Positions 20,049-55,744 of a stretch of DNA of 64,000 nucleotides are shown piece by piece. Where the stretch lies: positions 675,501 through 739,500 of the forward strand of contig NZ_CP090975.1 in assembly GCF_021513215.1 (NCBI RefSeq), given 5' to 3'. Under the pieces are notes generated by a model, which searched no databases, was not told where the DNA came from, and saw only the letters and a program-made list of their open reading frames with translations. Numbering within the stretch: the stretch's first letter is position 1; each line of letters begins with the position of its first letter. Source of the DNA: Suttonella sp. R2A3 (lineage in GTDB: Bacteria; Pseudomonadota; Gammaproteobacteria; Cardiobacteriales; Cardiobacteriaceae). The position numbers and the translations under genes are program-made.

Positions 20049-21564
20049 TACGTCGTTTATGCTAAACTTTGAGCGATATTTAACTAAGGTGACATCATGA
20101 GACATAGCGATATTATTGTGGTCGGCGGTGGACCTGCCGGTTTGAGTTTTTGTCGTTCATTAGCAGGTAGTGGCCTATCGATTACTGTGGTTGATAATCA
20201 CGACGCTGCAGAGCTTGAAAACGCGCCATTTGATGGTCGCGAAATTGCGCTAACCCACCCGTCAAAACATACTCTTGAAGCCACCGGGATTTGGCAACAT
20301 ATTCCCTCTAATGAGATTTATAACCTTCGCGAAGCTTCAGTGGTTAATGGTGATTCACCCTATTCATTGCATTTCCCACTACCTGAGACCAACCGCAAGA
20401 ATCAGCCGATTGAGACCTTAGGTTATCTGGTGACCAACCACCTGATTCGTCGAGCCGCTTATGCCGCGTGTCTTGAGCAAGACAACATCACTTGGTGCCT
20501 GGGACGTAAAGTCGTCTCCGCTAAAAGTGATGCTAATGCCGCGTATGTCACTCTTGATGACGAGACCCAGCTCTCTGCCGATCTGTTGATTGCTGCTGAC
20601 AGCCGTTTTTCATTCGTACGGCGTGAAATGGGCATCCCAACCGATATGCACGATTTCGGTCGCACGGTGATGGTGTTCCGCCTAGAGCACACCATCAGCA
20701 ATGATCATACCGCTTTTGAATGTTTTTTCTACGGTAGCACCCTGGCATTACTCCCACTCACCGATAATATGACCAACTGCGTGGTCACCATTGACACCCG
20801 CAAACTACACACCTTAAAAGCGATGAACGACGAAGAGCTTGCCAACCACATTGCCGAACAAGTCGATCATCGCTTTGGCGAGATGAAGCTAGCCAGCACC
20901 ATTCACGACTACCCACTTATGGGGGTTCATGCTCGCCGCTTTTACGCGAACCGCTGCGCATTGGTTGGTGATGCCGCCTGTGGTATGCACCCAGTCACCG
21001 CGCACGGCTTTAACCTCGGTCTACAAAGTCAGGCCATTTTAAGTCGGTTAATTTTACGCCAAGCGGGTCAAGGTAAAGATATTGGCGCGGCTGAAGTATT
21101 AACCCGTTATCACCGTGAGCACGTAAAAAACACCCGCTTGCTTTATCACGGCACCAATGCGATCGTGAAACTCTTCACCCAAGAATCGCGACCGGCAAAA
21201 ATCGTTCGTGATGGGGTGTTACGTTTGAGCAACCGCCTACCGCCACTCAAAACGCTAATCACACGCCAGCTCACGGGATAATGGCGAAGCATTCATATTT
21301 AACACTTGGGCTTTAAAGACAATCTTGCTACACTGCTCGCGTTATTTTTGTGGATCATAATCAGGAGTATCATTATGAACAAGAGCATTAAAGCCTTATC
21401 TCTAGCTGCCTTAGCTGCACTGAGTTTTGGCGCACAAGCCAAGGTAAGCGAAGGTCAGGCCTATGGCGACTGGAAAGGTGTGTGTAAAGACGGTGAGTGT
21501 GGTATTACACAAACGGTTAACAACGACAGCGGCCAACCAGTTGGACAAATTATCATCCGTAAAA
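19500..21564. repeat. Tandem duplication, copy 1 (2,063-bp period)
   Basis: This segment recurs at 21563-23627 with a constant offset of 2,063 bp. I found no mismatch by eye, and the encoded ubiM proteins are identical. It covers the 3' 40% of tmcA, all of the ubiM-like gene, and the first part of the ialB-like gene. The copies share only the two bases AA at the junction (21563-21564). No insertion sequence or transposase gene flanks them. Confidence 0.95.
20097..21281 (+). CDS. ubiM: FAD-dependent ubiquinone-biosynthesis hydroxylase, UbiM-like (copy 1)
   Basis: A 394-residue flavin monooxygenase of the UbiH/UbiF/UbiM group, which adds hydroxyl groups to the ubiquinone precursor ring. The GGGPAGLSFCRSLAGSG dinucleotide-binding motif opens the protein, a DGREIALTHPS arginine motif follows, and the late GDAACGMHPVTAHGFNLGLQ motif contacts FAD. 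The REIALTH segment resembles UbiM rather than UbiH or UbiF, but I assign the subfamily from recall. An AAGGTGAC ribosome-binding site precedes the ATG. An identical copy lies at 22160-23344 because of the tandem duplication. Confidence 0.75.
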   Translation: MRHSDIIVVGGGPAGLSFCRSLAGSGLSITVVDNHDAAELENAPFDGREIALTHPSKHTLEATGIWQHIPSNEIYNLREASVVNGDSPYSLHFPLPETNRKNQPIETLGYLVTNHLIRRAAYAACLEQDNITWCLGRKVVSAKSDANAAYVTLDDETQLSADLLIAADSRFSFVRREMGIPTDMHDFGRTVMVFRLEHTISNDHTAFECFFYGSTLALLPLTDNMTNCVVTIDTRKLHTLKAMNDEELANHIAEQVDHRFGEMKLASTIHDYPLMGVHARRFYANRCALVGDAACGMHPVTAHGFNLGLQSQAILSRLILRQAGQGKDIGAAEVLTRYHREHVKNTRLLYHGTNAIVKLFTQESRPAKIVRDGVLRLSNRLPPLKTLITRQLTG

Positions 21565-22159: not shown

Positions 22160-23344
22160 ATGAGACATAGCGATATTATTGTGGTCGGCGGTGGACCTGC
22201 CGGTTTGAGTTTTTGTCGTTCATTAGCAGGTAGTGGCCTATCGATTACTGTGGTTGATAATCACGACGCTGCAGAGCTTGAAAACGCGCCATTTGATGGT
22301 CGCGAAATTGCGCTAACCCACCCGTCAAAACATACTCTTGAAGCCACCGGGATTTGGCAACATATTCCCTCTAATGAGATTTATAACCTTCGCGAAGCTT
22401 CAGTGGTTAATGGTGATTCACCCTATTCATTGCATTTCCCACTACCTGAGACCAACCGCAAGAATCAGCCGATTGAGACCTTAGGTTATCTGGTGACCAA
22501 CCACCTGATTCGTCGAGCCGCTTATGCCGCGTGTCTTGAGCAAGACAACATCACTTGGTGCCTGGGACGTAAAGTCGTCTCCGCTAAAAGTGATGCTAAT
22601 GCCGCGTATGTCACTCTTGATGACGAGACCCAGCTCTCTGCCGATCTGTTGATTGCTGCTGACAGCCGTTTTTCATTCGTACGGCGTGAAATGGGCATCC
22701 CAACCGATATGCACGATTTCGGTCGCACGGTGATGGTGTTCCGCCTAGAGCACACCATCAGCAATGATCATACCGCTTTTGAATGTTTTTTCTACGGTAG
22801 CACCCTGGCATTACTCCCACTCACCGATAATATGACCAACTGCGTGGTCACCATTGACACCCGCAAACTACACACCTTAAAAGCGATGAACGACGAAGAG
22901 CTTGCCAACCACATTGCCGAACAAGTCGATCATCGCTTTGGCGAGATGAAGCTAGCCAGCACCATTCACGACTACCCACTTATGGGGGTTCATGCTCGCC
23001 GCTTTTACGCGAACCGCTGCGCATTGGTTGGTGATGCCGCCTGTGGTATGCACCCAGTCACCGCGCACGGCTTTAACCTCGGTCTACAAAGTCAGGCCAT
23101 TTTAAGTCGGTTAATTTTACGCCAAGCGGGTCAAGGTAAAGATATTGGCGCGGCTGAAGTATTAACCCGTTATCACCGTGAGCACGTAAAAAACACCCGC
23201 TTGCTTTATCACGGCACCAATGCGATCGTGAAACTCTTCACCCAAGAATCGCGACCGGCAAAAATCGTTCGTGATGGGGTGTTACGTTTGAGCAACCGCC
23301 TACCGCCACTCAAAACGCTAATCACACGCCAGCTCACGGGATAA
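22160..23344 (+). CDS. ubiM: FAD-dependent ubiquinone-biosynthesis hydroxylase, UbiM-like (copy 2)
   Basis: Encodes the same 394-residue flavin monooxygenase as the gene at 20097-21281, with the same AAGGTGAC ribosome-binding site and about 110 bp of identical upstream sequence. Both copies should be expressed if the promoter is in or before the repeat. This copy is followed by the intact ialB-like gene, as in the inferred ancestral order tmcA-ubiM-ialB. The FAD motifs are intact, so the duplication would raise dosage rather than inactivate the enzyme. Confidence 0.75.
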   Translation: MRHSDIIVVGGGPAGLSFCRSLAGSGLSITVVDNHDAAELENAPFDGREIALTHPSKHTLEATGIWQHIPSNEIYNLREASVVNGDSPYSLHFPLPETNRKNQPIETLGYLVTNHLIRRAAYAACLEQDNITWCLGRKVVSAKSDANAAYVTLDDETQLSADLLIAADSRFSFVRREMGIPTDMHDFGRTVMVFRLEHTISNDHTAFECFFYGSTLALLPLTDNMTNCVVTIDTRKLHTLKAMNDEELANHIAEQVDHRFGEMKLASTIHDYPLMGVHARRFYANRCALVGDAACGMHPVTAHGFNLGLQSQAILSRLILRQAGQGKDIGAAEVLTRYHREHVKNTRLLYHGTNAIVKLFTQESRPAKIVRDGVLRLSNRLPPLKTLITRQLTG

Positions 23345-48555: not shown

Positions 48556-48604
48556 CCCGCATCATCAGGTGCGGGTTTGCCCGCTCGCCTCAGCGGGCTT
48601 TTTT
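48556..48604 (+). terminator. Terminator after frdABCD
   Basis: Two adjacent hairpins lie here: CCCGCA / TGCGGG and then GCCCGCT / AGCGGGC followed by six T. The second is a standard terminator; both lie between the convergent frdD and racemase genes. Confidence 0.85.
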
Positions 48605-49720
48605 AGACAACCACGCGTGGATTGCACCGCCCCCACACCGTATAGAGATCTTCCATCAGCGCTTGGTTAATTGTCTCAATTTCCGATTCGCTGATGCATT
48701 CTTGTCCTTGGCGGCCAAAAATCACCACTTCATCGCCTAAACGTGCCTCTGGGATATCGCTGATATCAATGGTGGTGACATTCATCGACACCCGTCCAAT
48801 TACCGGCGCACGCTGCCCGCGCACCAACATCTCACCACGATGACTAAACGCGCGCCGATAACCGTTAGCATAACCAACCAGCACGGTTGCGACCCGACTA
48901 TCCCGACGCAACACATGCTCACGCTCATAACTCACGCTGCTGCCTTTAGGATATTCATTGATGCTGGCAATACGCGTTTTAAAGCGCATAATACTGCCAC
49001 CGAGCGACACCCCGGGTATCGCCATCTCGCCATACAGCGCCTCGCCTGCGCGCACCCTATCTAAATGGGTGTTGGCATCACTCAACAGCGCATACGAATT
49101 CGCCGCATGACAACAGATTTTTTCACGATTTAGCCCCCCACTTCGATCAACCAATCACATTCCTCTCTAAATCGTGCCAGACTTTGGCTGATATCATCGC
49201 GGTGCTCTTTCGGAAAGTGCGTCATGATGCCGCGTGGGGTCAAACCTGGCAACTGTAGAATCGCGCGCGCCTGTTCGCGACCATCGCCATGGCGCAAATC
49301 GAGACCATTACGGCCCATACCGGCAGAATTGAGTTCAAAATGATATGGGATTTTGATCCCAGCAGCTTGCGCATGAGTGCTCATCTGCGCGGCATTATCA
49401 AGATGACCAATAAGCTCAGTCACCCCATATGGCGCCGCTTCAATCACTTCCTGCTCTGTAGCGCTGCGAAGGCGGATAATTTCGCCCTCGTAGCGAGGCT
49501 GCTGCTGGGCAACTATCGCGAACAGCTCACTATTATCAGCAATAGCAACACAAGAAATATTTTCTGCAATAACCGTCGGTAACACATTAGCAATCCCCAT
49601 GCCGTAGGCATCCGCCTTCATGACCACACAGAGCTCACTACGCCCAATCACGTCCTTCACAGCACCAATATTGTCCGCTAATTGCGCACAATCAACCTCC
49701 AACCAAGCAGGATATTGCAT
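48603..49720 (-). pseudogene. PLP-dependent alanine/broad-specificity racemase, frameshifted
   Basis: The 5' part (49720 to 49130) carries the PLP lysine in VVMKADAYGMG and the NSAGMGRNGL and GIMTHFPKEH segments. The 3' part carries the catalytic tyrosine region VGYANGYRRAFSHRG, the RAPVIGRVSMN motif and the C-terminal barrel. They are in different frames. The break is at a run of six G (minus strand, 49134-49139); one more G restores a single frame of about 372 residues reading EVGGLNREK. The full-length sequence resembles Bsr-type broad-specificity racemases. Either the gene is inactivated, phase-variable, or the base is missing in the assembly. Confidence 0.8.
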
Positions 49721-50064
49721 AACCCAAAGTCCTAAAATCAAAACCCAAGCATCATATAACCAAAAGTTGCGCAGACCAACTATGCACCAGCACAACACCT
49801 CATTATAGGCCAACCACTCAACACAACTTAACCCCCAACACACTGTTAACATTAAAAATAAGTTAATTATTCACAAGCCACCCCTCTCCTGATTTTAACA
49901 AAAAAAGAGAATATAAATGATTGTCATTAACTTTAATATTAGCAAAAACAATATCTTAGGGATGAAAAATGCGTTAAGAAGGCGTATGATTAAAGAAACA
50001 AATGACGACGATTGCGTTCGCATGATTATAACGCTCGATGAGGCATGTCGAAACGGAGAGTAGT
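49721..50064. other. Divergent intergenic region with no recognised gene
   Basis: This 344-bp AT-rich region separates the racemase and the decaheme cytochrome. It should contain both promoters. I see no FNR-box match of good quality, no RNA gene and no ORF with a ribosome-binding site. AATGATTGTCATTAAC at about 49917 is a weak Fur-like palindrome. Confidence 0.5.
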
Positions 50065-52326
50065 ATGAAAACACGAATAAACCAGTTTATCTGTCTAAGC
50101 GCTCTTATGGTTATAGAGCTGTTTTTTAGTCCGGCAATCGCAGCAGAAGACTTCCCTGCTCCTAGCGAGGGTTGTCTCACTTGTCACCAAGGCATTGAAC
50201 CGATTAGAGATCATGATTCGTTGATGATGCAGCAAATCTATGCCATGAGTAATGGTATGGGCGACCCTAATGGCTGTGTGGTCTGTCATGGTGGTACCCC
50301 AGAAGAAACAGAAGACGCCGACCTCGCCCATAGCGGGACACCAAAAGGCAGTCCACTTGAAAACTTCACCCCGGTTCCTGCCTCATTTGCTGTGATGGAT
50401 AAAACCTGTGGCATGTGCCATTACCAGCAAACGCAAAGTATCCGTAAATCGATCATGTCCAATGAGTCTGGCAAGATCAAAGTCATCACTTATGGCTGGG
50501 GCGTTAACAACGATGATTATCTCCACCGCTATGGCAACCAGGACATGCAAGACAGCGACGGACCAACCCCTATTTACGGTTCGCCGGAATATAAAGCGTA
50601 TGTAACAGAGATTGTCGCGCAACATGCTGACCGCATCCCGAGCGAACTCAAGAAGATCCCTCAAGCCGATATGTCTTCACTGGAAGAGTTTCCTGAGCAA
50701 GCCGCTTATAGCTTCCTGCGCAACTGTAACGCCTGTCACTTACCAGGCAAAGGCAAACCGAAAAAAGGTCATTACCGTGGCCTAGGCTGCGCTGGCTGTC
50801 ATATTCCTTATGGTTTAGAAGGTCAATATGAAGGCAACGACCCATCTATTGACCCTGAAGCAAAAGGGAAAATGTTAGTCCACTCAATGCAAGGGACTGA
50901 AAAATCGAAAGTGCAAGTGCATGACACGGAATATTCCGGTATTCAGATTGCCACCTGTAATGCCTGTCATAGCTCAGGTCGTCGCGTTAGCCTCTCCTTC
51001 CAAGGTTTGTTCGCGGCCGATAGAACAACCACTTATGCACCGTTTGACGCTGAAGGGAATATGCAAGGCCCTAGCTCAACGTATTTATACAAACACCTCA
51101 GAGCCGATGTACACTTCGACGCTGGCATGATCTGTCAGGATTGCCACACCTCGCCAGACTTACACGGTAACGGCAATATTGGCACAGTCGCATTGGCCAA
51201 CGTTGAGCCAGAGTGTCAAGACTGCCACGGCACACCAACTGACTACCCTTGGGATCTCCCATTGGGCGTTGGTGATGAGCTCATCGATCGCGCGAAACTC
51301 AGCGAAGATAGCGCTGTGTTGAGCCTGCTCGACGAGCCTAGAGGTTTAGCAGAAAATTCGATGACGATTACCCAAACCTACGCCACCACTTACGATAAGA
51401 AAGATGGCTATTTAATCTCTTCACGTGGTAATGCTTTTGGTAACGTGGTTAAAGACGGGGATAAAGTTATCCTGCATTCAGCCACCGGCAAAACCCTTGA
51501 AGTGCCTATCTTGAAAGATATCGAAGACAACAACCTCTGGCAAAACCCTGAAGGTCGTCTAGCGATGGTCGGTGCACCGAAACATTTAGAAACCATGGAA
51601 TGCTACGCCTGCCACGCCACTTGGGCGCCTTCATATCTCGGTTACACCTATAAACTCGACTATTCTGAAGGTAACGAAATGGTTGATTGGGTTGAATCTT
51701 CGGCGAAAATCAATCCTGATGGTACAACCTCAGATACTGATGGTGAGAGCATGGTGATGCAAAAAGGCGCACCGTCTGGTGACTACTCGCATGCGCGCTG
51801 GGAAGAACCTGTATTGGGTATTAACGGCGAAGGTCGCGTCACACCACTGGTTGGGGTAATCCAAACCACCGGTACGGTTGTTGACGAAGAAGGTAAGGTC
51901 GTGTTGTTGAATAATGTGGCTAAACGCGAAGAAGATGGCATGCTAACCATCGATATGCAGCCATTGAACCCACACACCACGACCAGACAAGCCCGAGGCT
52001 GTAGCGATTGTCACCTCAATGAAAAAACCATGGGGTATGGCATGAGCGGCGGTGATGTGAGCGCTGATCCACAAAGTCAGTTCTATCTGGGTCTAAAAGA
52101 TGACGACGGCCAGCCGATAGCCAAGCAAAATACAGCACCTCAAATCGAGTCCATCAAAAACTTGAACAATGGTGACTATATGACGATCTTGGATCAAGAC
52201 GGCAACCAACAGATGGCTGTTGGACCACACTTCGAACGTTCAGGACCGCTTTCTGAAGCACAACGTGATTCACTGAAAGACCCTGACTATTTAGACAAAG
52301 CCAAAGCGGCGTTAGAAGCACAGTAA
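50065..52326 (+). CDS. Secreted decaheme c-type cytochrome
   Basis: A 753-residue exported multiheme cytochrome. The signal peptide (start MKTRINQF, hydrophobic ICLSALMVIELFF core, AIAA cleavage) leads to ten CxxCH motifs with first cysteines near residues 37, 71, 115, 221, 242, 298, 357, 384, 513 and 646. No lipobox or membrane helix is seen. Spacing is unlike the tight packing of the small decahemes MtrA/DmsE, and there is no classical MtrC lipoprotein start. It is clearly a redox protein, but enzyme or electron carrier cannot be told. A GGAGAG site fixes the start at 50065. No partner gene adjoins. Confidence 0.85.
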   Translation: MKTRINQFICLSALMVIELFFSPAIAAEDFPAPSEGCLTCHQGIEPIRDHDSLMMQQIYAMSNGMGDPNGCVVCHGGTPEETEDADLAHSGTPKGSPLENFTPVPASFAVMDKTCGMCHYQQTQSIRKSIMSNESGKIKVITYGWGVNNDDYLHRYGNQDMQDSDGPTPIYGSPEYKAYVTEIVAQHADRIPSELKKIPQADMSSLEEFPEQAAYSFLRNCNACHLPGKGKPKKGHYRGLGCAGCHIPYGLEGQYEGNDPSIDPEAKGKMLVHSMQGTEKSKVQVHDTEYSGIQIATCNACHSSGRRVSLSFQGLFAADRTTTYAPFDAEGNMQGPSSTYLYKHLRADVHFDAGMICQDCHTSPDLHGNGNIGTVALANVEPECQDCHGTPTDYPWDLPLGVGDELIDRAKLSEDSAVLSLLDEPRGLAENSMTITQTYATTYDKKDGYLISSRGNAFGNVVKDGDKVILHSATGKTLEVPILKDIEDNNLWQNPEGRLAMVGAPKHLETMECYACHATWAPSYLGYTYKLDYSEGNEMVDWVESSAKINPDGTTSDTDGESMVMQKGAPSGDYSHARWEEPVLGINGEGRVTPLVGVIQTTGTVVDEEGKVVLLNNVAKREEDGMLTIDMQPLNPHTTTRQARGCSDCHLNEKTMGYGMSGGDVSADPQSQFYLGLKDDDGQPIAKQNTAPQIESIKNLNNGDYMTILDQDGNQQMAVGPHFERSGPLSEAQRDSLKDPDYLDKAKAALEAQ

Positions 52327-52333
52327 AACGCCA

Positions 52334-52375
52334 GCCTGCCATAGCAATATCCATTTACGCTATGGCAGGCTTTTT
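52334..52375 (+). terminator. Terminator after decaheme cytochrome gene
   Basis: GCCTGCCATAGC and GCTATGGCAGGC form a perfect 12-bp stem with a 13-base loop and TTTTT after it. It isolates the cytochrome gene from the next cluster. Confidence 0.93.
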
Positions 52376-52496
52376 CGTTCAGCCCACTCACCATAGTTGG
52401 CATTTCTACCCTGTTCCCCAAAAAACAAGTTTTTATTGTGATCTTGACGATAGTATTGCACTATAAGTGCTCGTTATCTTAGCCAAAGAGGACGCG

Positions 52497-53171
52497 ATGC
52501 GCCCCCAAGAAATCAGAGATAAGAATGTCGACAAACTCATGTCACTCGGGTTTAAGCCCGCACAATGGCTACCGCTTTCTGAGCAGCAAACGCTACGTCC
52601 TTATGAGGAAATCGCCGCTCGCCTTTATGCCCTCGATGCCCTCATTTGCTGGGTAGTTTTTAGCGAAGAGCAAACTGCCTCACAGCGTATTAAGCGCTAT
52701 ATGGATAATAATCATTTATCTGCGTTTATGACTGATGACGAGTTAGCAATATTCTCACTAACGCGCAGCAAAGCCAATCAAACCTATATTGATAACATTG
52801 GCTGGTATTTGGAAAACGTCTGGGCCTTAGCCTGGGTATTAGGATTTACTATTGAACCTGAGGTTAGCATCGGACAACTGCCCAACGACATCACCAGCGC
52901 GTTGATGTATGATTTTTTACCGGGCTTAGAGGCCAGTGTTGACGACATACTGTCTGCCAACCAACCGCGCAGCCTGGAAGAAGTGGTCAAACTCGAAGAC
53001 CTTTATTATTGCGCACACAACGCTGTAAGAAGCGCACAACTCGGCCACGACACGCTCCCTGAAGGCTACCACCCCATCAGCGATGGTGGCGCTATCCATG
53101 AACGCAGACACAGCCTGACTTGGTGTTTATCTCCAGGTATTAGCTGGGAAGATACCGACCTGAGCACTTAA
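52497..53171 (+). CDS. DUF4272-domain protein
   Basis: A 224-residue soluble protein. The RDKNVDKLMSLGF start, the AARLYALDALICWVVF core and the ERRHSLTWCLSPGISWEDTDLST ending fit the DUF4272 family. No enzymatic motif is visible. AGAGGAC precedes the ATG at 52497. It opens a closely spaced run of small plus-strand genes, and DUF4272 proteins are often found in such immunity-like arrays, but this specific role is inferred. Confidence 0.75.
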   Translation: MRPQEIRDKNVDKLMSLGFKPAQWLPLSEQQTLRPYEEIAARLYALDALICWVVFSEEQTASQRIKRYMDNNHLSAFMTDDELAIFSLTRSKANQTYIDNIGWYLENVWALAWVLGFTIEPEVSIGQLPNDITSALMYDFLPGLEASVDDILSANQPRSLEEVVKLEDLYYCAHNAVRSAQLGHDTLPEGYHPISDGGAIHERRHSLTWCLSPGISWEDTDLST

Positions 53172-53187
53172 ATACTGAGATAAGCTT

Positions 53188-53769
53188 ATGGGGACACACT
53201 TTAGCTATATTGCCGATCAGGCGCTCCCTTCACTCGAAGAAGAAGAGGTGTGTCAGCACTGCGAGCAAGAAGGCATCAAGGCGTATGCGGTCCGAGCGAC
53301 TATCTTAGATCCTTCATTAAGCGCTGACCCTGAGCTTGCAGAAGAAGAACCTCAGCTTAACTATGCCTGTGAAAGCTGCATTAAATCTGGCAATCTCGCC
53401 TTAGACGAAGATTATCTCAATGATTTAAAAGCCAGCTTGCCCAAAGGCCTTCATAACCGCATTGAAAACCCTCAGTTTGCACATCAACCGTATATCCAGT
53501 TTCTACACCATAACGATTGGCCGTTTTGCTGCCATGATTTGACCGAATATATCGGTGAAACACCCGAAGCCGATGAAGATTATGCGACCTTCACCTGCTG
53601 GCGACCCATGTCGCCATCGGTTGCTGATTATGCGTTACAAGATTTTTATCCCTTAGAAAATATTGAGCCGTTTTTTACCATGCGGCTTTTTCGCTGCCTT
53701 CATTGCGCAGCAAAATATTGGAATTTTCAATATAGCGGATTGCTATGGCCTGGCCCAACACACAGTTGA
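53188..53769 (+). CDS. Cysteine-rich small protein, possibly CbrC/UPF0167-related
   Basis: A 193-residue acidic protein with paired cysteines (CQHC, CESC, CC, CLHC) that probably bind zinc. The HNDWPFCCHDLTEYIG segment and the RLFRCLHCAAKYW ending resemble CbrC-type proteins, but I cannot confirm this. No signal peptide or membrane segment. It lies 16 bp after the DUF4272 gene. Confidence 0.6.
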   Translation: MGTHFSYIADQALPSLEEEEVCQHCEQEGIKAYAVRATILDPSLSADPELAEEEPQLNYACESCIKSGNLALDEDYLNDLKASLPKGLHNRIENPQFAHQPYIQFLHHNDWPFCCHDLTEYIGETPEADEDYATFTCWRPMSPSVADYALQDFYPLENIEPFFTMRLFRCLHCAAKYWNFQYSGLLWPGPTHS

Positions 53770-53810
53770 TTCAGCGTAGAAATTTCTTTACCAACCAATG
53801 AGAGCCCATC

Positions 53811-54236
53811 ATGAACGAGATCGACGATAAAACCTATGCAGAGATTCAAGACTTATGCGATAAAGGCGACGATTTTGCAGATAACGGCGATTATCATAAC
53901 GCCCTAGCCCATTTCTGGCAGGCCTTTGATTTAGTCCCTGAACCCAAAACAGATTGGGATACCGCCACATGGATTTTAGCGGCCATTGGCGACACGAATT
54001 TTTTGGATAAAGATTTTCAAGCAGGCGTTGAACACTTATCTCAGGCGATGCACTGCCCTGACGCGATTGGTAATCCGTTTATTCATATGCGCTTGGGGCA
54101 ATGTCAGTTAGAGATTGGCAATCTCGATAGAGCGACAGACGAATTACTGCGCGCTTTCGCTCTAGAAGGTGATGATATTTTTGCGGAAGAAGATCCAAAA
54201 TATCTCGCTTTTCTCAAAGCGCGTGTCGATATTTAG
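53811..54236 (+). CDS. Tetratricopeptide-repeat-like protein
   Basis: A 141-residue helical protein with about three TPR-like helix pairs (GDDFADNGDYHNALAHFWQAF, AIGDTNFLDKDFQAGVEHLSQAM, RLGQCQLEIGNLDRATDELLRAF). Such repeats mediate protein contacts. No enzymatic motif is seen. It sits in the middle of the immunity-like run. Confidence 0.7.
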   Translation: MNEIDDKTYAEIQDLCDKGDDFADNGDYHNALAHFWQAFDLVPEPKTDWDTATWILAAIGDTNFLDKDFQAGVEHLSQAMHCPDAIGNPFIHMRLGQCQLEIGNLDRATDELLRAFALEGDDIFAEEDPKYLAFLKARVDI

Positions 54237-54267
54237 TATTTCTAGAATCTGCTCCAGAGGCTATAGC

Positions 54268-54759
54268 ATGAGCCAACAAGCGATAGATAACATCCTTAAT
54301 CGCTGTCCTAACGAGAAACGGATCGCGCTGGTTAAGGCGTTAGATAATCCTGCTGATTTATTTACCCTGCTGTGTCAATACAATTGGGATGATGGGTTTG
54401 AATTACCTTACGCCGTAGTGACCCACGAACAGTGTGATCTAGGTTTAGCACTGATGCTCTTTTGGGAAGAGGCTATTGTGCAGTTATATTATTTTAATCC
54501 TGATAAATATTGGCTGAATACATCGGCGAGTAATCACGAAGGGAGGTTGTACGAGCTTAATTTTTGTAAAGTGATTGTTGATGGCATCAGAACACAGGCA
54601 TTTAAAAAAGCCGTTAATGAATATGACACGGGTTTCTATGGCGAGCACCTACACCCAGAGAATGAACGCAAGGCCAAAATCAGAGCGTATAAAACACGTA
54701 TCGCGCTGAGAAGAGGAGAATTTGAACCTGTTTTCTTACAACCCTGTTTTATCGAATGA
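54268..54759 (+). CDS. DUF4274-domain protein
   Basis: A 163-residue soluble protein. The YNWDDGFELPYAVVTHEQCDLGLALMLFWEEA segment is characteristic of DUF4274. An AGAGG site lies upstream of the ATG at 54268; a longer frame beginning inside the preceding gene is unlikely. Its stop overlaps the next start by four bases. Role unknown. Confidence 0.78.
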   Translation: MSQQAIDNILNRCPNEKRIALVKALDNPADLFTLLCQYNWDDGFELPYAVVTHEQCDLGLALMLFWEEAIVQLYYFNPDKYWLNTSASNHEGRLYELNFCKVIVDGIRTQAFKKAVNEYDTGFYGEHLHPENERKAKIRAYKTRIALRRGEFEPVFLQPCFIE

Positions 54760-55187
54760 CTTACCCATTATTAAAAGAAGCCATCAAAACGGCTACACGA
54801 AAAACTTATCAAGCGATGCTTGCATATGTTGGCGATGAGCAAATCTATTATTTTGTACTAACCACAGTTGGGGAGGCCTTATCTCCCGGACAATCTGCTT
54901 GGACAGAACAGTTGTTAGAGGAAAAAACACAACAAAGCCTCGGCTTATATCTTGATAACTACGAAGCATTAAAAGACGACTTAAGATGGTCGTATTCAGA
55001 TTCGCCTCTTTTTTGTTTTGGAGCGCAATATTTCGAACCCGTGACACAATTATTCCTCGCTCGGCCAGAATTGACCTATACCATGAGCGATGAGGCGTGG
55101 GAAAAAGAATATCAATTTAGAATCTCTGAAATGACTCAAGCGCTCATAGAGCTCGATGAAGAAGGTCTTTTTGGCGTTAATGCGTAA
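54756..55187 (+). CDS. DUF4303-domain protein
   Basis: A 143-residue soluble protein with an N-terminal helix, the IYYFVLTTVGEALSPGQSAWTEQLLEEKT pattern and a DLRWSYSDSPLF segment, fitting DUF4303. It overlaps the DUF4274 gene by four bases (ATGA), so these two are translated together. Role unknown. Confidence 0.75.
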   Translation: MTYPLLKEAIKTATRKTYQAMLAYVGDEQIYYFVLTTVGEALSPGQSAWTEQLLEEKTQQSLGLYLDNYEALKDDLRWSYSDSPLFCFGAQYFEPVTQLFLARPELTYTMSDEAWEKEYQFRISEMTQALIELDEEGLFGVNA

Positions 55188-55199
55188 AGACAAAAGATT

Positions 55200-55310
55200 A
55201 TGGTCAACCTTGAAATCAATCCAGCAGATGACTCAAATAGTGCACGCGCAAAGCGACTCAATCCCAATGGTGGGGTTGTTGATCAGTGGTTACAAGCCTG
55301 TGCAGAATGA
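55200..55310 (+). CDS. Short ORF, 36 residues
   Basis: An open frame (MVNLEINPADDSNSARAKRL start, WLQACAE end) lies between the DUF4303 gene and the SMI1 gene. No clear ribosome-binding site is visible. It may be a remnant of a larger immunity-like gene or spurious. Confidence 0.25.
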   Translation: MVNLEINPADDSNSARAKRLNPNGGVVDQWLQACAE

Positions 55311-55327
55311 ACAACCTATAGCCCGTT

Positions 55328-55744
55328 ATGCCCTTTCCAATCGATATCACAGTTATTGCTGAGACCGAACAGACCTTAGGGTTGACGTTCCCACCGCGCT
55401 TTAAAGCAAGAATGTGCCTTAGCAACGGCGGGGAGTTGTGTACAAAGAAAGCAGTTTGGCAGCTGTTTCCTTTTTGGGATAAATCCAGCAAGAAACATAT
55501 CAGCAGAACAGCTAACCATATTATTATAGAAACTGAACAAGCCAAAAAATGGATTGGGTTTCCGCATGAAGCCATCGCTATTGCCGCAAATGGTTTTGGG
55601 GATTTATTGATCCTCTTACCAAGTGCAAAAAGCAGTAAACAATTAGGCGAAAAACTCTATGTCTGGTCTCACGAAACTGGAAAAATCAGAAAAGTAGCCG
55701 ATACAATAGACGCCCTCGACTTCCCAAGCGAAAAACGTCTCTGA
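55328..55744 (+). CDS. SMI1/KNR4 (SUKH)-family protein
   Basis: A 138-residue protein whose LGLTFPPRFKARMCLSNGGEL start and FGDLLILLPS block match the SUKH fold. In established work this superfamily includes many immunity proteins against polymorphic toxin nucleases and deaminases. It is the last gene of the run beginning with DUF4272. No signal peptide, so cytoplasmic protection would be expected. Confidence 0.8.
   Translation: MPFPIDITVIAETEQTLGLTFPPRFKARMCLSNGGELCTKKAVWQLFPFWDKSSKKHISRTANHIIIETEQAKKWIGFPHEAIAIAANGFGDLLILLPSAKSSKQLGEKLYVWSHETGKIRKVADTIDALDFPSEKRL

What the first reader, a model, noticed from the sequence alone, without database searches (positions are those of the whole stretch)
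52497..55744. Compact array of immunity-like genes without a visible toxin
Six small plus-strand genes (DUF4272, Cys-rich, TPR-like, DUF4274, DUF4303, SMI1/KNR4) lie in 3.2 kb with short gaps and overlaps. SUKH proteins are established immunity proteins for polymorphic toxins, and from recall several of the others often share such arrays. No toxin, Rhs or secretion gene is in the window, so this may be an orphan immunity bank against neighbours or an uncharacterised defence operon.
Basis: partly seen in the sequence, partly recalled or inferred. Interest (0 to 1): 0.65.

Follow-up and report, generated by a model that had tools for sequence, protein, structure and literature searches.

The report
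Orphan toxin-immunity gene array without toxin
Six small neighbouring genes look like a store of antidotes against other bacteria's protein toxins, kept by a bacterium in which the common contact-delivered toxin systems were not found; one antidote gene is cut short, and several of the six belong to families not yet listed as antidotes.

Summary
The six plus-strand genes are real: DUF4272, UPF0167/CbrC, a 141-aa TPR protein, DUF4274, DUF4303 and SUKH-1. Gaps are -4 to 41 bp, except 140 bp after DUF4303; that gap is DUF4303's own leftover 3' end, because an in-frame TAA at 55185 removes about 40 C-terminal residues. Each of the four DUF/UPF families occurs in at most 3 of 369 sampled genomes of the class, and no other sampled genome has two, so the cluster is not chance. 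The genome has no TPS/CdiA, Rhs or Hcp match.

Best reading: a small orphan heterogeneous polyimmunity locus. TPR relatives sit beside polymorphic toxins in four contexts; in a Ruminococcus phage the TPR gene directly follows one toxin while SUKH follows a sister toxin with a similar N-terminus. DUF4303 follows an Rhs-AHH/Imm11 pair. A DUF4272 gene lies in a SuFu/Imm50 array. DUF4274 has no such support, and most close DUF4272 relatives lie in mixed accessory neighbourhoods. The kind is known; some immunity assignments look new. No function was tested.

The parts
52333..52375 (+). Perfect 13-bp inverted repeat followed by T run: terminator-like end of the upstream cytochrome gene, separating it from the array
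   Evidence: read directly in the sequence
52497..53171 (+). DUF4272 protein, 224 aa (GTG start at 52467 possible; homologues favour the ATG at 52497)
   Evidence: PF14094 98 bits; 63% identical to a Vibrio protein over its whole length; alignment of 37 homologues
53188..53769 (+). UPF0167/CbrC-like Cys-rich protein, 193 aa
   Evidence: PF03691 28 bits, cut-off 25; conserved Cys pairs with Chryseobacterium homologues
53811..54236 (+). TPR protein, 141 aa, candidate immunity protein
   Evidence: full-length relatives 33-54%; relatives beside polymorphic toxins
54268..54759 (+). DUF4274 protein, 163 aa
   Evidence: PF14096 45 bits
54756..55187 (+). DUF4303 protein, truncated to 143 aa by in-frame TAA at 55185
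   Evidence: PF14136 95 bits, 116 bits when read through; homologues are longer
55188..55310 (+). Detached 3' remnant of DUF4303, open in the same frame
   Evidence: translation; matches the C-terminus of homologue L119
55328..55744 (+). SMI1/KNR4 (SUKH-1) protein, 138 aa
   Evidence: PF09346 52 bits; only SUKH-1 match in the genome

Best explanation
A small orphan heterogeneous polyimmunity locus: unrelated small proteins, co-oriented and probably co-transcribed, each of which binds and blocks (or once blocked) one class of toxin domain delivered into the cell by neighbouring bacteria. Shown: the array; its rarity and non-random clustering; the absence of TPS, RHS and Hcp genes from the genome; the truncated DUF4303; and relatives of the TPR, DUF4303 and DUF4272 proteins inside toxin-immunity or polyimmunity loci elsewhere. 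Inferred: co-transcription, toxin binding, horizontal arrival. [quoted passage not shown]
For: Four rare families and a lone SUKH clustered in 3.2 kb. TPR relatives: directly 3' of a HINT toxin in a Ruminococcus phage, where SUKH follows a sister toxin whose first ~476 residues are 60% identical but whose C-terminus differs; after a HINT toxin and SUKH in Hymenobacter; after VgrG, PAAR-like/LHH nuclease and SUKH in a Rhodobacteraceae plasmid; after PAAR-like toxin genes and a Tdi1-type immunity gene in Rhizobium. A Salmonella Rhs-GH-E effector is reported with a TPR protein as putative immunity (PMC11669294). DUF4303: directly after Rhs-AHH/Imm11, near Imm1. DUF4272: in a SuFu/Barstar-like/Imm50/LRR array. 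CbrC protects against colicin E2 (PMC3599342). Layout fits the published features of polyimmunity loci (PMC3482391). Family members carry CdiA-like systems.
Against: DUF4274 relatives lie among housekeeping genes. Close DUF4272 relatives have no dominant neighbour family; only 2 of 144 near neighbours are SUKH. Several TPR and DUF4303 relatives lie outside toxin loci. DUF4303 is truncated. The phage toxin's GH-E match is below cut-off. No expression or function data.
Confidence: 0.64

Rival explanations
1. Decaying remnant: the genes are immunity genes left over from imported or deleted toxin loci and now drift without selection, so the array protects against nothing at present.
For: DUF4303 carries a premature stop; relatives keep CdiA-like loci that this genome lacks.
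Against: Five of six frames are intact with tight junctions, not expected after long drift. None of the six proteins matches an ORF in the CdiA stretches of relatives that were read, so they are not simply left over from those loci. The stop could be a base-calling error.
Confidence: 0.19
2. Mixed accessory cargo: small mobile genes of unrelated function gathered at an insertion hotspot, only some (SUKH, TPR) being immunity genes.
For: Relatives of DUF4272 and UPF0167 lie in integron cassette arrays (L079, L105); close DUF4272 relatives have varied neighbours such as GNAT acetyltransferases and glyoxalases; DUF4274 has no toxin link.
Against: The window array has no attC-like repeats and gaps are too short for them; three further families have their own immunity-locus examples.
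Confidence: 0.14
3. A multi-subunit defence operon (for example anti-phage) whose six products act together.
For: Tight co-orientation with one 4-bp overlap.
Against: No convincing PADLOC or PHROGs match; no nuclease, ATPase or membrane effector family among the Pfam hits; no other sampled genome of the class holds two of the four rare families, so the set is not conserved as a unit.
Confidence: 0.03

Closest known systems
Heterogeneous polyimmunity loci (Zhang et al. 2012, PMC3482391)
   Same: Tandem small co-oriented genes of unrelated families, short gaps, no toxin inside, differs between relatives, single locus, SUKH present
   Different: Only SUKH of the six is in the held table of immunity families under a name I could match; no recombinase beside it; one member truncated; no other known toxin system found in the genome
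rAID systems of Bacteroidales (PMC12247911)
   Different: No adjacent tyrosine recombinase, no shared intergenic motif, GC 41-48% rather than under 41%, different phylum
Integron cassette arrays
   Same: Hold relatives of DUF4272 (Vibrio, L079) and UPF0167 (G154, L105)
   Different: Window array has no attC-like repeats and nearly no intergenic space
PT-HINT toxin cassettes of Ruminococcus phage NatCom_28775 (L143)
   Same: A relative of the TPR protein, and a SUKH protein, each follow a toxin
   Different: Window holds the immunity-type genes only

Membership tests
Heterogeneous polyimmunity locus | Never interrupted by toxin genes or cassettes | tested here: met
   All ORFs in the array are the six small families
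Heterogeneous polyimmunity locus | Small intergenic distance, same orientation | tested here: met
   Gaps -4 to 41 bp; the 140-bp gap is DUF4303 remnant
Heterogeneous polyimmunity locus | Several structurally unrelated immunity proteins | tested here: inconclusive
   SUKH yes; TPR, DUF4303, DUF4272 by neighbourhood; UPF0167 by literature only; DUF4274 none
Heterogeneous polyimmunity locus | Content varies between close relatives | tested here: met
   Congener G005 has none of the four rare families
Heterogeneous polyimmunity locus | Usually a single locus per genome | tested here: met
   SUKH-1 and each rare family have one match in the genome
Heterogeneous polyimmunity locus | Proteins neutralise toxins | not testable with these tools
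   needs co-expression or binding assays
rAID system | Adjacent predicted tyrosine recombinase | tested here: not met
   Flanking genes are cytochrome, response regulator, histidine kinase
rAID system | Conserved intergenic motifs and GC under 41% | tested here: not met
   No shared repeats in the array; gene GC 41-48%
Integron cassette array | attC site in each intergenic gap | tested here: not met
   No attC-like pairs or repeats, gaps too short. The pattern scan also missed the arrays in L079 and L105, so the repeat search and the gaps carry this
Polymorphic toxin locus (CDI, Rhs, T6SS) | Toxin with delivery domain beside the immunity gene | tested here: not met
   No TPS, RHS or Hcp in the genome; MafB, colicin and other types not searched

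The most novel reading that the evidence does not exclude
The TPR protein, DUF4303 and DUF4272 (a confidently predicted helical fold without a significant structural match in the searches run) are immunity families not yet catalogued, and the locus is a minimal anticipatory immunity bank in a species that lacks the contact-dependent toxins still found in its relatives: defence kept without offence.
Probability: 0.3. Interest if true: 0.6.

Novelty: new member of a known kind. Interest (0 to 1): 0.42.

Why it matters
It turns several families of unknown function into testable immunity candidates and gives a specific pairing to try first (the TPR family against GH-E-like HNH/ENDO VII nuclease toxins). 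If right, it is a simple case, in a 2-Mb genome without CdiA, Rhs or Hcp, for asking how selection keeps orphan immunity genes.

Tried and rejected
Viral contigs held no relatives of DUF4272, DUF4303 or the SUKH protein. NCBIfam, PADLOC and PHROGs gave nothing convincing. Fold searches with the DUF4272 model (pLDDT 96.7) found no significant match; this does not show that the fold is new. The UPF0167 model was unusable (pLDDT 41). An integron cassette array was considered because of L079 and L105 and rejected for the window; my attC pattern scan also failed to flag those two arrays, so it carries little weight. rAID was considered and rejected. Promoter-like sites did not exceed chance. DUF4274 near toxins: six loci read, none seen; one paper lists a DUF4274 gene among VgrG-flanking genes in Stenotrophomonas LM091 (PMC6653060), a lead only. 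No DNA-level match of the array on plasmids.

Full report
OBSERVATION. The six plus-strand ORFs lie at 52497-53171, 53188-53769, 53811-54236, 54268-54759, 54756-55187 and 55328-55744. Pfam gives DUF4272 (98 bits), UPF0167 (28, cut-off 25), sub-cut-off TPR models, DUF4274 (45), DUF4303 (95) and SMI1_KNR4/SUKH-1 (52). Gaps are 16, 41, 31, -4 and 140 bp. Upstream is a multihaem cytochrome gene ending in a terminator-like hairpin (52333-52375); downstream a convergent response regulator/histidine kinase pair.

A BROKEN MEMBER. The 140-bp gap is the 3' end of DUF4303. The six-frame Pfam match runs through an in-frame TAA (55185-55187) and rises from 95 to 116 bits. The frame then stays open to 55310, and homologues carry the corresponding C-terminus. 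The gene is therefore truncated in this assembly, by mutation or by base-calling error. The alanine racemase gene nearby is also split by an apparent frameshift, so sequence error cannot be excluded in either.

CHANCE. In 369 genomes of the class, this one included, DUF4303 occurs in 3, DUF4272 in 2, DUF4274 in 2 and UPF0167 in 2, and the other carriers are all different genomes. Independent co-occurrence would be of order 1e-10 (2 x 1 x 1 x 1 over 368 to the fourth power). The congener G005 has none of them. The SUKH-1 match is the only one in the genome. Gene GC falls from 48% (DUF4272) to 41-43% (last three genes), but the downstream neighbours are equally low, so composition does not prove import.

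NO OWN WEAPON OF THE COMMON KINDS. The genome has no TPS domain, no RHS repeat and no Hcp. Relatives do have CdiA-like genes: the congener G005 has a 4431-aa TPS ORF whose 3' end is followed by a 148-aa ORF, and genomes of another genus have 3-4 kaa TPS ORFs with small ORFs among toxin-like modules. None of the six proteins matches an ORF in those stretches. Other delivery types were not searched.

TPR PROTEIN. Full-length relatives (33-54%) occur on plasmids and in two phages. Hymenobacter volaticus: PAAR-like/HINT protein with a sub-cut-off AHH match, Imm11, HINT toxin, SUKH, TPR, HINT fragment, TssD. Rhodobacteraceae plasmid: VgrG, DUF2169, PAAR-like/LHH nuclease, SUKH, TPR-like, TPR. Rhizobium beringeri: PAAR-like toxin genes, Tdi1-type immunity gene, TPR-like, TPR. 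Ruminococcus phage NatCom_28775: a HINT toxin with a weak, sub-cut-off GH-E tail (15 bits) is directly followed by TPR; a HINT cassette by a Tdi1_C gene; a HINT/WHH toxin by SUKH. The first and last toxins are 60% identical over about 476 N-terminal residues and differ in the C-terminal part. The TPR gene thus sits where a cognate immunity gene is expected, a position that SUKH fills in the sister cassette. Independently, a Salmonella Rhs-GH-E effector is reported with a TPR protein as putative immunity (PMC11669294); whether that TPR protein belongs to this subfamily was not tested. Three further contexts are not clear toxin loci (L129, L130, L133).

DUF4303. In G376 the order is Rhs C-terminus with AHH nuclease, Imm11, DUF4303. 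In G381 it lies in a run of small co-oriented genes that includes Imm1. In G387 it is next to DUF5071, and in G415 next to DUF6892 with a DUF4272 gene about 3.5 kb upstream. Several other carriers show no such context.

DUF4272. Eighty loci were retrieved. The window-like subfamily has no dominating neighbour family; 2 of 144 near neighbours are SUKH. The closest relative (63%) lies in a Vibrio integron-like cassette array with repeats in the gaps. A more distant member in Neobacillus lies in an array with SuFu, a Barstar-like gene (sub-cut-off), DUF3885, Imm50, LRR and a sub-cut-off SUKH match. In two Chryseobacterium genomes DUF4272 and UPF0167 lie about 3 kb apart. The predicted fold is helical and confident (pLDDT 96.7), without a significant structural match.

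UPF0167 AND DUF4274. UPF0167 is the CbrC family; CbrC is reported to protect E. coli against colicin E2, possibly by altering the outer membrane, and its gene is induced by colicin M (PMC3599342). One relative lies in a cassette array with repeats in each gap. DUF4274 relatives lay among unrelated genes in the six loci read.

READING. The anatomy fits the published description of heterogeneous polyimmunity loci: no toxin inside, small gaps, same orientation, variable between relatives, a single locus (PMC3482391 section 39). rAID membership fails on recombinase, motifs and GC. The mechanism is inferred from the families: each protein binds one toxin domain in the cytoplasm and blocks it, as shown for SUKH orphan immunity proteins in Bacteroidales (PMC12247911). 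The main doubts are whether all six are immunity proteins and whether the array is selected or decaying.

ORGANISM. The genome is 1.99 Mb in one contig. From recall, the family's make-up would suit Cardiobacteriaceae; this was not tested.

Noticed in passing
window 48603-49852, minus strand: Alanine racemase gene split into N- and C-terminal ORFs in different frames: an apparent frameshift near 49130-49154, real or a sequence error.
   Followed up: partly
window 50038-52326: 762-aa multihaem cytochrome (MtrC/MtrF-like domain) upstream of the array is found in no other of the 12 genomes of the family, so the neighbourhood itself may be accessory.
   Followed up: partly
L143 1576-11240: Ruminococcus phage carrying several PT-HINT toxin cassettes, each followed by a different immunity-type gene (TPR, Tdi1_C, SUKH); all annotated hypothetical.
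   Followed up: partly
L079 and L105: Integron-like cassette arrays with long repeats in every gap (Vibrio sp. LaRot3 and G154), holding relatives of DUF4272 and UPF0167 among many unknown small genes.
   Followed up: partly
L106-L109: CdiA-like ORFs of the congener and another genus of the family with small ORFs and toxin-like modules downstream.
   Followed up: partly
window 52497-53171: DUF4272 has a very confident helical model with invariant R34, R42, W103, E106, H174 and an ERR motif (202-204), which might mark an active or binding site.
   Followed up: partly
window 20097-21281 and 22160-23344: Two 394-aa ORFs with identical composition statistics 2 kb apart, perhaps duplicated elongation factor Tu genes; not checked.
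   Followed up: no
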